DNA from: Zygosaccharomyces rouxii
Taxonomy: Eukaryota > Ascomycota > Saccharomycetes > Saccharomycetales > Saccharomycetaceae
Direction: 5' to 3'
Length of the DNA stretch: 64,000 nt
Assembly: GCF_000026365.1 (NCBI RefSeq)
Contig: NC_012992.1
Location: 372,001-436,000 of the forward strand
A model generated the notes under the pieces. It was not told the origin of the DNA and did no database searches. It worked only from the letters and a program-made list of their open reading frames with translations. Position numbers and translations under genes: made by a program. How positions within the stretch are numbered: the stretch's first letter is position 1; the number at the start of each line of letters is the position of its first letter. Of this stretch, positions 5,077-41,842 are shown in pieces.

Positions 5077-5210
5077 GCTCGTGTAGCTCAGTGGTTAGAG
5101 CTTCGTGCTTATAGTTGAATTCGGTTCTCCGAATCACACTGTGCGAACGGCCTTTCAAGGCAGGTCTTCAAGCAACGCGACCGTCGTGGGTTCGAACCCC
5201 ACCTCGAGCA
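5077..5210 (+). tRNA. tI(UAU): tRNA-Ile(UAU), intron-containing
   Basis: Exon 1 is 5077-5113 and exon 2 is 5175-5210, giving a 73-nt mature tRNA. The anticodon TAT is at 5110-5112, in the loop CTTATAA. The anticodon stem TCGTG pairs with CGCGA, and the T-arm GTGGGTTCGAACCCCAC is intact. A T-rich terminator follows within 25 nt. The sequence matches the minor isoleucine tRNA of S. cerevisiae (reads AUA). It lies beside the CYSTM gene, as tI(UAU)D lies beside YDR210W as far as I recall. Confidence 0.97.
5114..5174 (+). other. tRNA-Ile(UAU) intron
   Basis: A 61-nt intron inserted after position 37, the canonical site. It contains a self-complementary ATTCGG...CCGAAT hairpin at its 5' end. In S. 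cerevisiae the intron of this tRNA (60 nt) is needed for Pus1 to modify the anticodon; I infer the same here. Confidence 0.9.
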
Positions 5211-6229
5211 CTTTCAATTTCATTATTTTTTTGTTTTTTTTTTCGTTTCCTGTTTTTTTAATTTTGTCGGAACAAGGACAGTAAATCACCGTTGGTTAAC
5301 AAATAGTTAATTTGAAGACACTGGTATAAAAACAACAAACGTGAATAGAGAGTTTAATGTTTGGATTTTCAAGTGGTATCATTTCTAAACACTTAACGCT
5401 CTTTGTAGAATTTAGACAGTTCCTCGTAACCCAATTACAGCAGGGTTACTTCTCCTTACACTTCTTACACTTCTTACATATATTTCCACTATTGCCGCTA
5501 GTATTCGAAAACTATCTCCGCACACACACAGGTCGCGCCTATAACGTAATTTGCTTGTGATGCATCACAAGTCATTTCCCCACATCTTATAAAGAACGGG
5601 AAAATATTACAGAAAAAAAAACAACCTTCCCTTTTAACCGCCACTCTGGAATTTCACATTTACGCAGGATCGTAATACCGAACAATGGAAGTGATAAGAC
5701 TAAAAGCTTGTTAGCAGGCAGCTGAGCTTACTTCTTCGCCAAAATAGCCGCCTATGCAAACACACGTGATACAGATGCTGCCTATGTGTCACGTGTAATT
5801 ACTCTCCGTTTTAGAACCGCACTGCTTCACCGAAATCTTACGATATCAATTTTTTTATCATCGTTGTTATTATTATTATTATCATCTTTTTTTTTTTTTT
5901 TTTTTTTTTTTTTTCGGAATTAGAACTCCTTCTTCCACTGCTAACCGGTTAGTCATAAATGGATGACCACTAACAGTGACGTCGTCGTTTCTCATTGGTT
6001 CAAAACTTTATGCGCATGACGCTTCGCGGTGGGCACTTGAACGAGTGTTGCAGCGCATCGGCGAGTTAGCCTATAATACTATAAAAGATTGACCCTCAAT
6101 CATACAAAGAAGTCTCATTCTGGAAGAGACTGACAAGAATAGAGAAAAAGCTGAAATTGAAACTCTTGGATTGTTTCCGGCTCTACTGAAAAAACAAGCA
6201 ATCGTGGTAAAGCTGCACAATCCATTACA
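5211..6229 (+). promoter_or_regulatory. PYC upstream region
   Basis: A 1-kb interval with no credible gene. It holds a perfect 18-bp palindrome (5554-5571), two CACGTG E-boxes at 5763-5768 and 5790-5795 (Cbf1/Ino2-Ino4/Pho4-type core), a (TTA)n stretch near 5866-5880, and a 28-nt poly(dT) tract at 5887-5914, typical of nucleosome-depleted promoters. A TATA element lies just before the transcribed leader. Confidence 0.6.
6080..6087 (+). promoter_or_regulatory. TATA element of PYC
   Basis: TATAAAAG, 143 bp upstream of the PYC start codon, which is a usual yeast distance. It is the best TATA match in the interval. Confidence 0.6.
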
Positions 6230-36615: not shown

Positions 36616-37959
36616 TCAATTGTTCAATTTGATAGTATAATCATCACCACTTTGTGTAATATATCTTACCCATGGATAACTTTTGTACAGCAGCTTTGGT
36701 TCTGTAATTTTTAAGTAACGAACTTGTATCCCTGACGTTGTGAAATAAGGAATTTGAAATTTAATTTGTACTGGTCTTTTAACTTTTGGCTTATCTAATG
36801 CGTTAATTGATGGCAACCCCATTTGAGCTGACATTGAGTATTCTTTACCGCCCGTAAAGCTCCTTATTTTCCACAGAATTGCATTCTTCTGTGGCACCCA
36901 TTTCACTGAACCATGTGTATATTTGAAGGAAGGCGTATCTGCATCATCAGGCACTGGTATTAAAATCTCCACACTATTCGCTATTGAACGTTTCTTGATT
37001 TGAGCTCTTGCCCTACAATGTATTTCTATTCTTGATTGTGAGTGTACTTGAACGTTGACATCACACCATATTAACGGTTTGACAGGCATTGACAATCTAT
37101 AATTCATTAATTCAAACGCACCGTCCGGTGGAATAAATGTAATTATCTTTTCATTTTCAAATTTACTCAACCTTACGCACTGATGGAATTTTAAATCTTC
37201 TAATTCAATATTAGTCTTCTTTTTACCCTCAGTAACTGCCGTTGTTACTGGATCACTATCACCTTCCACATACTTAGAAAAAATACCCTTATCGTTGATA
37301 CCTAATTTTAAATCCGGCATACCTGATAATTTGGACTTAACTTTGATTTGCCCTATAATTTCAGACCTTAATACTTGGCCCTGTTGATTCATTAACATGT
37401 TAATTGATTCTACAATATCTAAGAACGCCTCATTTTTCTTGTGAACAATATTTGGAGCTCTCCAACTAACGGAATTCGTTACTTCAGTTGGAGGTCTTGG
37501 TGCTGCTTTACTCTTTTTAACTGCTTTCATCAATTTAAATGATTTTTGAGTAATATATTGTTTTAACATCTTTGTTTCCGTAATTTGTGGAATACCGTAA
37601 TCCATCATTTCATCCAATAATTCATATATTATAATAAAATTATCCCTAACCGATTCTTCTTCCACTGATTTCAAATACTCCTCTAGTACTTCCATCAATT
37701 TATGTAGAAAGGCGAAAACTTGTGCCACATTTGTTGCCAACGACGTCGCTAACGCTACCACGTAAAGATCATTGTGCTGAATGAAAAGGTATTGAATTCC
37801 ATCATGGCTTAAACAAGGTGGAATTACACTTGATTCTTCCTCTAATTGCAACAGTAGCGGTGCGAATTTATCAATTGCAGAAATTGGAATATCGTCTCTG
37901 TACCTTCTCGAAAGGATCGGCCTGCCTTTACCATCACAAAAGTAGACCGCAGACACCAT
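36616..37959 (-). CDS. APM1: AP-1 clathrin adaptor mu subunit Apm1
   Basis: Medium (mu1) subunit of the AP-1 adaptor for clathrin-coated vesicles between the trans-Golgi network and endosomes. The 447 residues (475 in S. cerevisiae YPL259C) have an N-terminal longin-like domain (1-140, VSAVYFCDGKGRPILSRRYR) and a C-terminal mu homology domain (about 165-445) that reads YXX-phi sorting signals, ending SYPWVRYITQSGDDYTIKL. Conserved WRAPNIVHKKNEAFLDIVE starts the domain. It is convergent with DOT5 and lies 193 bp downstream of EST3 on the same strand. Confidence 0.96.
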   Translation of the reverse strand: MVSAVYFCDGKGRPILSRRYRDDIPISAIDKFAPLLLQLEEESSVIPPCLSHDGIQYLFIQHNDLYVVALATSLATNVAQVFAFLHKLMEVLEEYLKSVEEESVRDNFIIIYELLDEMMDYGIPQITETKMLKQYITQKSFKLMKAVKKSKAAPRPPTEVTNSVSWRAPNIVHKKNEAFLDIVESINMLMNQQGQVLRSEIIGQIKVKSKLSGMPDLKLGINDKGIFSKYVEGDSDPVTTAVTEGKKKTNIELEDLKFHQCVRLSKFENEKIITFIPPDGAFELMNYRLSMPVKPLIWCDVNVQVHSQSRIEIHCRARAQIKKRSIANSVEILIPVPDDADTPSFKYTHGSVKWVPQKNAILWKIRSFTGGKEYSMSAQMGLPSINALDKPKVKRPVQIKFQIPYFTTSGIQVRYLKITEPKLLYKSYPWVRYITQSGDDYTIKLNN

Positions 37960-38152: not shown

Positions 38153-38660
38153 TCAATTGAGCACCAATGGGTAAGTTTCCAGCGATTCTACTTGATCCCA
38201 ATCGAAAATTGCGGTCTGGTTTACCCTTAGAACTGGTGTCTCACCTCTGGTCACAATTTTGTAGTGATTTTCAATGTACGAAGGTGAATGGTAAATCAAC
38301 TGGCAATCGGCAATTATAAAAACGCAATTGGTCGTTTCTGCAGTTATCCTTGTGTAGTAACGTCTTTCAAAATCTGATACGCATTGGGGTGTAAACTCAA
38401 CTAAGCAATTGAGCTTTGGAATCTCTTATGGAAGCATACACTGTGTAATGATCCACATCAAAGAATCTTGTAACTTTTACGAAATGACGTATATTGGAAA
38501 GCACTTTGGAGCTTAGTTCTGGTTGGGAAAGATCCTGAGTGGGCACTGGCGGGATTAGACGATCACCCAGTCTTGGATCGTGTTCGGCTAGGGCAGTTTG
38601 TATCCATGGTTGTAGAAAGACAGAATCAAAAGGTTTTACAGATACAATTGCTTGAGGCAT
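38153..38660 (-). CDS. EST3: telomerase subunit Est3 (+1 programmed frameshift)
   Basis: Regulatory subunit of telomerase, with a TPP1-like OB fold. Two overlapping frames make the protein. Frame 1 runs from ATG 38660 to codon CTT (38405-38403), 86 residues starting MPQAIVSVKPFDSVFLQPWI, and meets a stop two codons later. A +1 shift that skips A38402 continues GTT-GAG-TTT in the second frame for 82 codons to TGA at 38155-38153, giving 168 residues (181 in S. cerevisiae). The second part retains yeast Est3 blocks such as CVSDFERR, ITAETTN, VNQTAIFDWDQV. S. cerevisiae EST3 is known to need the same +1 shift. It is next to DOT5 and URM1 relatives, as at YIL009C-A. Confidence 0.95.
38399..38405 (-). 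promoter_or_regulatory. +1 ribosomal frameshift heptamer of EST3
   Basis: On the coding strand the sequence is CTT-AGT-T followed by GA. Leucine CTT in the ribosomal P site followed by the slowly decoded AGT permits slippage to GTT, bypassing the TGA stop at 38399-38397. CUU-AGU-U is the heptamer reported for S. cerevisiae EST3. Confidence 0.93.
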
Positions 38661-38776
38661 GAAAGGCTTTATTGCTTGCACAGTGAACGGTAGAGTGTGC
38701 AACCATGGTATAGTTTCAAGCGAAGTAATGAAGCATTTAGAACTAATACTGGTAAAATGAAATTTAAAAAAATAAC

Positions 38777-38848
38777 CTCCGCGACGGGGAATTGAACCCC
38801 GATCTGGCACGCGACAAGCGCCCATTCTAACCATTAAACTATCACGGA
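38777..38848 (-). tRNA. tD(GUC): tRNA-Asp(GUC)
   Basis: A 72-nt intronless minus-strand tRNA with anticodon GTC (GAC at 38813-38815). The acceptor TCCGTGA pairs with TCGCGGA, the T-arm GGGGTTCAATTCCCC is intact, and a T7 terminator follows. It differs by one base from S. cerevisiae tD(GUC). It lies 116 bp upstream of the EST3 start codon on the same strand, so its termination is close to the EST3 promoter. Confidence 0.97.
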
Positions 38849-39519: not shown

Positions 39520-39889
39520 TTTGTATTATGTGGGCGATGTGTATGGAAATAAAGGGATACGATCCTTGAATGAAGAAAACATCACCGTTCACCTTTTATA
39601 TAAGTTTCTTCCTACCCAAAAGTTGGTTAAAAACCGGTAAATCTAGTGTAATATAGTAATAAAATCAGTTTGGTACCACAAAGAGGCGTGGCAGCTCAAA
39701 CGGTGATGAGATCAACTGAGCCGCACTATTGAAGCATAGATAATAAAGCAGGCCTAAGCAGTCTAAATCATTGTAGAAGAGGGTAAACTTGTCGTGTTGT
39801 ATAGAAGAGGTTTATACGTAATTTGTTGGAAATCTTGTGGGGATAAGTTATTAATAGACCTTACAATAATAGTAATTGAAAAAAATAAA
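39520..39889. other. intergenic region
   Basis: 370 bp upstream of the second CYSTM gene and downstream of tRNA-Trp. It must hold the CYSTM promoter (TATATAAG at about 39597-39604). Nothing else recognised. Confidence 0.45.
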
Positions 39890-39990
39890 TGAAACGGACA
39901 GGAATTGAACCTGCAACCCTTCGATTGCCAATTCCGGAAGTATCCAGGATTTAACTGGAGTCGAAAGCTCTACCATTGAGCCACCGCTTC
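39890..39990 (-). tRNA. tW(CCA): tRNA-Trp(CCA), intron-containing
   Basis: Minus-strand tRNA of 72 nt after splicing: exon 1 39990-39955, exon 2 39925-39890. The anticodon CCA is encoded by TGG at 39956-39958. Stem TTCGA pairs with TCGAA, the T-arm CAGGTTCAATTCCTG is intact, and an oligo(T) follows. Position 37 is G here, against A in S. cerevisiae, if the intron is placed at the canonical site. Confidence 0.96.
39926..39954 (-). other. tRNA-Trp intron
   Basis: A 29-nt intron after position 37, shorter than the 34-nt intron of the S. cerevisiae tRNA-Trp genes. It begins TTAAATC as in S. cerevisiae. Confidence 0.85.
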
Positions 39991-40117
39991 ATCTTCGGAG
40001 ATAATGAAAAGGAAATGCAGATATATGCACCGATGGGAAGCACGTGGAAAAAATCAGACATTAGGTCTACCATAATGCACATATCTTTAAAGGCGCCCAA
40101 ATATACCCTAAACATTA

Positions 40118-41842
40118 TTATATACAATTGTCACGACTCAACGAGTTTAAACATGAAATTAGAGACAAAAAGGAAGCTTGTGTAACGTCCTCGTGAATAC
40201 CAACCCCCCATTGGACGTGCGGATTATCACCAGTTGTCGATACTGAAATATAAGTAGCAGCTTTAGAATTCGAATCTTTACCAAGAGAGTGTTCATGATA
40301 GTCTTGCACATCCAATTTTAAATGCAATTTGGAATTTATAGCACTGATGAAACATGAAATTGGACCATTACCTTCACCTGATAGTTCTTTTACTTGTGGA
40401 TCACCTTTAACAGATAAAAACACTTTGAGAAAGCACGAACCCTTATTTCTTGCAAATTCGTAATCCACTAATCCAAAGTTCCCCTCGACGTCCACAAAAT
40501 AGGTGGTTGCAAATAATTTGCACAATTGCCTAGATTGTAATTCTCTACCGATTGCTTCAGTTTCAGCTTGTGCAACTCTAGAGAAGGCAACTTGTAAACC
40601 ACGAGGTAAGTCTAACTGCATGTTTTTGAGAATAACCCATGATGCACCGCCCTTACCTGATTGTGAATTAACCCTAATAATCGCTTCATAAGTCCTACCA
40701 ATATCCTGTGGATCGAGCGGTAGATATGGTAATTGCCATGGGACCACAGTACCTTGTGGTATTGTCTCCATTTGTGCATCGTATCTTTGAAATCCTTTCT
40801 TAATAGCGTCTTGATGAGATCCGCTAAATGCGCAGACGACTAATTGCCCACCATATGGAGCTCTGGGGTGTACTGGTAATTTAGTACATTTTTCCACAAC
40901 ATCGATGATAGAAGCCATATCATGGAAATCTAAATTTGGTGAAATTCCTTGTGTATAAAGATTAAGTGCCAGTGTAACCAAATCTACATTACCTGTACGC
41001 TCACCGTTGCCAAAGAGACAACCTTCAACACGATCAGCACCTGCAAGCTGAGCCAATTCTGCCGCGGCCACGGCACAACCTCTATCATTATGGGGGTGTA
41101 ACGAAACACATACAGTATCACGTTTAGAGATGTTCCTGCAAAAATATTCAATCTGGTCAGCATAAACATTGGGTGTTGCCATTTCCACAGTCGCTGGCAA
41201 ATTAAATACTATAGGATTTTCCCTCGATGGACTCCATGCTTCCTTAACGGCTTCACAAATTTCAATTACAAATTCAGGATCACTATCAGAAAAGGTCTCA
41301 GGTGAAAATTCATAGGACCAATTAGTGAATTGTGCATCAGGATTATCCTTCGTTAGTGATCTAACCAATTTTGTACACTTAACAGCCTTCTCTTTGGCTT
41401 CCTCTTGTGACATATTGTTAAACACTATTTGCCGAAAACATGTAGATGTCGCCAAATATAAGTGTACGATTGCATTTTTAGCACCTTTGAGGGATTCTAC
41501 CGTCTTGTAAATCAGTTCCTCACGACAAGGTGATAAAACTTGCACATACACATCATCGGGAACAGTCTTGACGGCATATTGTGTGAATTGGAAATCGACA
41601 CCCGATGCACTGGGGAATGAAACTTCGATTTCTTTAAAACCCATATCACATAATTTACCCAACATCAACTTCTTTTCCTCTAGGGACATCGGATCTGGCA
41701 ATGCCTGATTACCATCCCTTAAATCCGTTGCTAACCAACGAGGGGCTTTGTGGAGGGACTTAGATGGCCATTGTCTATCCTGTAATTTAACTGGATTGAT
41801 GAACTTTTTGTACTTGACAGACGGATCGCTATAGTACGGCAT
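40118..41842 (-). CDS. LEU4/LEU9: 2-isopropylmalate synthase (Leu4/Leu9 family)
   Basis: Condenses acetyl-CoA with 2-ketoisovalerate in the first step of leucine synthesis. The catalytic TIM barrel includes RWLATDLRDGNQALPDPMS (about 35-53, metal ligand D43), ATVEMATPNVYADQIEYF, SLHPHNDRG and EGCLFGNGERTGN. A C-terminal leucine-binding regulatory domain is present (GNGPISCFISAINSKL, HSLGKDSNSKAATYI). At 574 residues it is shorter than S. cerevisiae Leu4 (619): it lacks about 30 N-terminal residues that hold the mitochondrial presequence and about 20 C-terminal residues. A TAG stop lies in frame 27 bp upstream of the ATG. It would therefore match the cytosolic short form. A second, longer copy may exist elsewhere. 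Confidence 0.93.
   Translation of the reverse strand: MPYYSDPSVKYKKFINPVKLQDRQWPSKSLHKAPRWLATDLRDGNQALPDPMSLEEKKLMLGKLCDMGFKEIEVSFPSASGVDFQFTQYAVKTVPDDVYVQVLSPCREELIYKTVESLKGAKNAIVHLYLATSTCFRQIVFNNMSQEEAKEKAVKCTKLVRSLTKDNPDAQFTNWSYEFSPETFSDSDPEFVIEICEAVKEAWSPSRENPIVFNLPATVEMATPNVYADQIEYFCRNISKRDTVCVSLHPHNDRGCAVAAAELAQLAGADRVEGCLFGNGERTGNVDLVTLALNLYTQGISPNLDFHDMASIIDVVEKCTKLPVHPRAPYGGQLVVCAFSGSHQDAIKKGFQRYDAQMETIPQGTVVPWQLPYLPLDPQDIGRTYEAIIRVNSQSGKGGASWVILKNMQLDLPRGLQVAFSRVAQAETEAIGRELQSRQLCKLFATTYFVDVEGNFGLVDYEFARNKGSCFLKVFLSVKGDPQVKELSGEGNGPISCFISAINSKLHLKLDVQDYHEHSLGKDSNSKAATYISVSTTGDNPHVQWGVGIHEDVTQASFLSLISCLNSLSRDNCI

What the first reader, a model, noticed from the sequence alone, without database searches (positions are those of the whole stretch)
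38153..38660. EST3 encoded through a conserved +1 ribosomal frameshift
Seen directly: an 86-codon frame starting at ATG 38660 hits TGA at 38399, yet reading GTT from 38401 (skipping A38402) opens 82 further codons to a TGA at 38153. The joint is CTT-AGT-T. Both halves carry blocks matching S. cerevisiae Est3. Established: S. cerevisiae EST3 needs a +1 shift at CUU-AGU-U. The same heptamer is kept here in a non-WGD relative, so the mechanism predates the whole-genome duplication. A plain ORF caller would lose or truncate this telomerase subunit, and the upstream frame would be wrongly extended through tRNA-Asp.
Basis: partly seen in the sequence, partly recalled or inferred. Interest (0 to 1): 0.75.

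Follow-up and report, generated by a model that had tools for sequence, protein, structure and literature searches.

The report
Yeast EST3 telomerase gene, ribosomal frameshift
This is the normal telomerase-subunit gene EST3 of a Zygosaccharomyces yeast, which can only be read in full if the ribosome skips one base, a trick already described for this gene in related yeasts.

Summary
On the minus strand ATG 38660 opens a frame that stops at TGA 38399-38397. Skipping A38402 at CTT-AGT-T opens 82 more codons to TGA 38155-38153, 168 aa in all. The fused protein is Est3: Pfam PF10341 E 4.6e-35, with the halves meeting at profile positions 70/71, and S. cerevisiae Est3 E 6e-45. A sequencing error is very unlikely: three other records stop after exactly the same 87 zero-frame codons, ending Leu-Ser. 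The genome (9.76 Mb, 7 contigs) fits Z. rouxii in size. It has at least five Leu(UAG) tRNA genes, and no Leu(AAG) gene was found, the tRNA background linked with this shift. The feature is known. A 2010 paper whose eight genomes include Z. rouxii says that the syntenic EST3, OAZ1 and ABP140 orthologs all bear the programmed shift, without listing species there (PMC2876123). EST3 shifting is also in print for Z. parabailii and Ashbya. That it predates the whole-genome duplication is not new. A by-product: BIR1 here appears to need a +1 shift at CTT-AGT-C, against CTT-A-GTT reported in Z. parabailii.

The parts
38400..38660 (-). EST3 zero-frame part: 87 sense codons from ATG 38660 to AGT
   Evidence: Pfam PF10341 positions 1-70, E 9.8e-10; same end in three 87-aa homologs
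38399..38405 (-). +1 frameshift heptamer CTT-AGT-T; A38402 skipped; next codon GTT (Val)
   Evidence: identical to the S. cerevisiae EST3 site as given in PMC12661321 and PMC12719033
38153..38401 (-). EST3 +1-frame part: 82 codons and TGA
   Evidence: Pfam PF10341 positions 71-152, E 7.8e-19
38397..38399 (-). zero-frame TGA stop, overlapping the Val-Glu codons of the +1 frame; by the alignment it falls where S. cerevisiae has its zero-frame UGA (codon 94)
38777..38848 (-). tRNA-Asp(GTC), separate gene upstream on the same strand, crossed by the uninterrupted zero frame

Best explanation
It is the EST3 gene of a Zygosaccharomyces yeast (most likely Z. rouxii or a close relative). It encodes the small OB-fold telomerase subunit Est3 through a programmed +1 ribosomal frameshift. 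Inferred from S. cerevisiae: peptidyl-tRNA-Leu(UAG) pairs poorly with CUU in the P site, slow decoding of AGU in the A site gives it time to re-pair with UUA one base on, and Val-tRNA then reads GUU. Ribosomes that do not shift read AGU and stop at the UGA next to it, releasing an 87-aa fragment. Shown here: the two open frames, the heptamer, the homology of both halves, conservation of the stop position in relatives, and the tRNA-Leu(UAG) genes. Inferred only: that shifting happens in this species, and how efficiently.
For: Frames and heptamer. Both halves and the fusion hit PF10341 contiguously. S. cerevisiae Est3 chains 9swn_C and 2m9v_A match along nearly the whole length at E 6e-45 and 4e-43, and the zero-frame TGA falls at the position of the S. 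cerevisiae UGA codon 94. Three of the four hits to the zero-frame query are exactly 87 aa and end Leu-Ser, at 74-83% identity. Z. mellis reads IPKFKCLVEF where this window's +1 frame reads IPKLNCLVEF, so its DNA can carry the same heptamer. At least five Leu(UAG) tRNA genes; no Leu(AAG) gene found by the pattern that did recover those five nor by three others. OAZ1 in the same genome has a GCG-TGA-C site. PMC2876123 makes the general statement for orthologs in a set of eight yeasts that includes Z. rouxii.
Against: No expression, ribosome profiling or peptide data were available. The DNA of the relatives was not available, only proteins, so the heptamer itself was not read in any other species. 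The search with the 87-aa query could only return proteins of about 48-152 aa (the tool's length rule), so it could not have shown a single-frame Zygosaccharomyces EST3; the search with the fused query could have, and gave only the Z. mellis model from that genus. In S. cerevisiae the EST3 heptamer shifts at about 15%, and 10% in its native context, in one reporter system, and the claimed 3' stimulator was not seen (PMC12661321), so efficiency here is uncertain.
Confidence: 0.96

Rival explanations
1. Assembly or sequencing error: one extra base in an ordinary single-frame EST3 gene.
For: A one-base insertion would give the same picture in a single sequence.
Against: Three other records stop at the same codon with 74-83% identity. 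The site is exactly the known shift heptamer, at the homologous position, with a chance of about 6e-4. PMC2876123, with Z. rouxii among its genomes, treats the EST3 orthologs as bearing the programmed shift.
Confidence: 0.01
2. Recent pseudogene: a real frameshift mutation has inactivated EST3.
For: The zero-frame product is truncated.
Against: There is no other stop or frame break in the 168 codons. The downstream half is well conserved. Relatives share the same break. No second Est3 gene was found in this genome at E <= 0.001; the two rows are the two halves.
Confidence: 0.01
3. A small intron removes the break.
For: The public Z. mellis gene model lacks about 21 residues just before the joint, as a predicted intron would do. 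One GTATG lies at 38439.
Against: None of GTATGT, GTAAGT, GTACGT, GTATGA, TACTAAC, CTAAC or TTAAC occurs in the gene or the 300 bases upstream on this strand. The Z. mellis model drops a stretch that the other four proteins of the alignment keep.
Confidence: 0.02

Closest known systems
S. cerevisiae EST3 (YIL009C-A), +1 frameshift at CUU-AGU-U
   Same: Same heptamer; zero-frame UGA at the homologous position (codon 94 there, codon 88 here); same protein family along nearly the whole length.
   Different: The protein is 168 instead of 181 aa; efficiency is unmeasured here; the S. cerevisiae DNA around the site was not compared.
EST3 of Zygosaccharomyces parabailii (both homeologs) and Ashbya gossypii ADL016C
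   Same: +1 frameshifting reported as needed to translate the first (with the EST3 site written CTT-A-GTT, PMC5433688); the second is listed among genes translated across frameshifts (PMC3737163).
   Different: Different species; their sequences were not compared here.
Other yeast +1 shift genes: ABP140 and YFS1 (CUU-AGG-C), OAZ1 (GCG-UGA-C), Ty1 and Ty3
   Same: Same class of event; ABP140, YFS1 and Ty1 share the P-site CUU; Ty3 shares the AGU-U part.
   Different: Different heptamers; [quoted passage not shown]

Membership tests
Est3 / TPP1 OB-fold telomerase subunit (PF10341) | Full-length match to the family profile | tested here: met
   E 4.6e-35, 121 bits against a cut-off of 26.5, profile 1-152 of 158; S. 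cerevisiae Est3 chain E 6e-45
Est3 / TPP1 OB-fold telomerase subunit (PF10341) | Binds telomerase and is needed for telomere maintenance | not testable with these tools
   experiment needed
EST3-type programmed +1 frameshift | CUU-AGU-U in the zero frame, followed by a zero-frame stop | tested here: met
EST3-type programmed +1 frameshift | Break conserved at the same position in relatives | tested here: met
   3 of the 4 hits to the zero-frame query are 87 aa and end at the same Leu-Ser; the fourth is the re-modelled Z. mellis record; protein-level only, and hits limited to about 48-152 aa
EST3-type programmed +1 frameshift | tRNA background: Leu(UAG) present, Leu(AAG/IAG) absent | tested here: inconclusive
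   five Leu(UAG) genes with introns; no Leu(AAG) with the pattern, which recovered all five; searches also found none but would miss a gene with an intron of that length
EST3-type programmed +1 frameshift | Measured shifting in vivo | not testable with these tools
   reporter, ribosome profiling or mass spectrometry needed
EST3-type programmed +1 frameshift | 3' stimulator of about 27 nt | not tested
   the S. cerevisiae stimulator DNA was not at hand; its effect is disputed

The most novel reading that the evidence does not exclude
The frameshift is kept because its efficiency is used as a control: supply of Ser(GCU) or Leu(UAG) tRNA, or the released 87-aa zero-frame fragment itself, tunes telomerase in these yeasts. 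The exact conservation of the 87-codon zero frame would fit, but so would plain inheritance.
Probability: 0.07. Interest if true: 0.5.

Novelty: already known. Interest (0 to 1): 0.12.

Why it matters
It is a clean example of a gene that ordinary ORF calling truncates: of the public records seen in the same genus, one is cut to 87 aa and one drops residues before the joint. It adds no new mechanism and no new age for the frameshift.

Tried and rejected
Sequencing error, pseudogene and intron were each considered and rejected. tRNA patterns: one search gave 29 matches; by their strings 12 are Ile and 12 Ser tRNA D-arm matches and 5 are others. Eight of the 29 loci were run through ARAGORN: Ile in L033, L046 and L057, Ser in L036, none in L043, L049 and L060, and in L052 only a neighbouring tRNA-Arg. 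One search gave 28 matches: 5 are Leu(UAG), 4 Leu(UAA) and 12 Ser(AGA) genes, and 7 loci hold no tRNA. One search gave 18 matches: 12 carry the Ile strings and 6 show no such string; of these 6 only the one in L060 was run through ARAGORN (none). One search gave 3 matches: one was fetched and is not a tRNA by ARAGORN or Rfam; the other two were judged by eye only. cannot see a Leu gene with an intron of 21-23 bases. Family MUG113 (PF13455) for YFS1 found nothing. Family PF08242 gave 15 matches; which of them is ABP140 was not worked out. Another window site, CTTAGTT at 975 minus, also sits in fairly long open frames (85 codons upstream, 31 more in frame, 62 in +1), but it lies antisense inside a 780-codon plus-strand ORF and was set aside.

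Full report
What is in the sequence. On the minus strand, ATG 38660 begins a frame of 87 sense codons ending ...CAA TTG CTT AGT and then TGA at 38399-38397. Dropping A38402 gives ...TTG CTT GTT GAG TTT ACA... and 82 further codons to TGA at 38155-38153, 168 aa in all with no other stop. The +1 frame is closed upstream by a TAA at 38428-38426, so the frame must change within 8 zero-frame codons. CTTAGTT occurs 9 times in 127,988 positions (both strands) of the window, so an in-frame one there by chance is about 6e-4. Among those 9 sites the EST3 one has the longest pair of frames (160 codons upstream to the last stop, 82 downstream in +1). The site at 975 minus also has 85 and 62, but it lies antisense in a 780-codon ORF and its zero frame runs on for 31 codons.

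What it is. The fused protein matches Pfam PF10341 (TPP1/Est3) at E 4.6e-35. The two halves match alone at 9.8e-10 and 7.8e-19, at profile positions 1-70 and 71-152. Against solved structures it matches S. cerevisiae Est3 (9swn_C E 6.2e-45; 2m9v_A E 4e-43); the one further hit, at E 0.87, is taken as chance (that these chains are from S. cerevisiae is recalled). Reading the printed alignment, Leu86/Val87 fall on residues 92/93 of that chain, so the zero-frame TGA (codon 88 here) falls at codon 94, where PMC5009743 places the S. cerevisiae UGA (passages seen). The genome has 9,764,635 bases in 7 contigs and one Est3 gene was found, as its two halves. That size fits the 9.8 Mb given for Z. rouxii in PMC2876123. 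Against a simple species label, the one record named Z. rouxii among the hits is only 83% identical in its 87 residues, so the name Z. rouxii is an inference and the genus Zygosaccharomyces is the safer statement. Neighbouring ORFs on the same strand are an adaptor medium-subunit protein (36616-37959) and an isopropylmalate synthase (40118-41842).

Is the break real? A search with the fused protein gave four proteins at E <= 1: Z. mellis (150 aa), Naumovozyma castellii (185), N. dairenensis (196, labelled LOW QUALITY) and Lachancea mirantina (207). All four carry LVEFTP across the joint; whether the last three are single-frame genes or joined by their annotators cannot be told from the records. 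A search with the zero-frame part alone, which by the tool's length rule could only return proteins of about 48-152 aa, gave four proteins at E <= 0.01. Three are exactly 87 aa and end Leu-Ser at the same codon, with 83, 77 and 74% identity: a Z. rouxii record named hypothetical protein ZYGR_0AI02220 and two unnamed assembly proteins. The fourth is the Z. mellis record. That record lacks about 21 residues (the HFVKVTRFF...SIRDS stretch) and reads IPKFKCLVEF; this window's +1 frame reads IPKLNCLVEF just there. The Z. mellis model therefore most likely skips a stretch and enters the +1 frame early (inference). These are protein records: the heptamer was not read as DNA in any relative. An intron is unlikely, since no usual donor or branch sequence was found; there is one GTATG at 38439.

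Mechanism. From S. [quoted passage not shown] This is worked out for CUU-AGG-C; PMC12661321 says the EST3 mechanism may be similar and supports P-site re-pairing by the effect of an upstream stem-loop. PMC12719033 reports, after Farabaugh 2006 (not read), that Leu(IAG) is almost always absent and Leu(UAG) abundant in species with this shift. In this genome five Leu(UAG) genes with introns of 21-23 bases were found. No Leu(AAG) gene was seen with the pattern, which recovered all five Leu(UAG) genes; three further patterns also showed none but would miss a gene with such an intron. An atypical gene could be missed. Five Ser(GCU)-like pattern matches were found but not checked by ARAGORN. The RF00005 search scored only 63 of 894 candidates, so it cannot serve as a census. 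Against a strong signal: in S. cerevisiae the EST3 heptamer gave about 15% and its native context 10%, and the stimulator was not confirmed (PMC12661321), whereas PMC5009743 cites an 8-fold stimulation.

What is already in print. PMC2876123 (2010; passages) used eight genomes including Z. [quoted passage not shown] the sentence does not list the species. PMC5433688 (2017; passages) reports that +1 frameshifting is required for Z. parabailii EST3 in both homeologs and gives the EST3 site as CTT-A-GTT. PMC3737163 (2013; passage) lists Ashbya EST3 among genes translated across frameshifts. PMC5009743 (passages) gives conservation over 150 million years. PMC12719033 (passages) states that no species that split off before Kluyveromyces and the other Saccharomycetaceae diverged needs the shift for ABP140 and EST3. 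The papers seen came from three searches. The finding is ordinary and gets a low score.

By-products. In the same genome OAZ1 has GCG-TGA-C at the end of a 69-codon first frame (L062). The BIR1 candidate (L063) has two BIR-domain matches in a 447-codon frame (stop to stop) that ends at 2343. A +1 frame open from 2225 to 3175 matches eight unnamed proteins of 206-296 aa, the best at E 2.4e-74; none is named Bir1, so the link of the second frame to Bir1 rests on its position. The only CTTAG in the stretch 2201-2360 is an in-frame CTT-AGT-C at 2314. PMC5433688 reports BIR1 shifting at CTT-A-GTT in Z. parabailii, so the last base of the heptamer would differ here. A sequencing error in BIR1 was not excluded.

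Noticed in passing
L063 2225-2343 (G000 chromosome C7, near 1431019): BIR1 candidate appears to need a +1 frameshift at CTT-AGT-C (2314-2320), a variant of the CTT-A-GTT reported for Z. parabailii BIR1; the downstream frame has conserved unnamed relatives. A sequencing error was not excluded.
   Followed up: partly
L062 1420-2227, minus strand: OAZ1 (antizyme) with a 69-codon first frame ending GCG-TGA-C, the known S. cerevisiae antizyme shift site.
   Followed up: partly
window 38626-38706, minus strand: A 26-codon out-of-frame ORF starts at ATG 38706 upstream of the EST3 start and overlaps it; if it lies on the transcript it would be an overlapping uORF.
   Followed up: no
window 39889-39991 minus and 5077-5211 plus: ARAGORN with introns allowed calls tRNA-Gly(CCC) at 39889-39991 (also found by Rfam at 39890-39990) and tRNA-Ala(TGC) at 5077-5211; both were missed. 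The second stretch was not searched with Rfam and may be spurious.
   Followed up: partly
public protein records P0002 and P0006: EST3 is mis-modelled in two deposited Zygosaccharomyces records: cut to 87 aa in one, and missing about 21 residues before the joint in the other.
   Followed up: yes
L098 1-161 (G000 C6:1230200-1230360): Repeated T-arm-like strings (GTTCGAATC twice, TTCGAACC once) in a stretch that is not a tRNA gene by ARAGORN or Rfam.
   Followed up: partly
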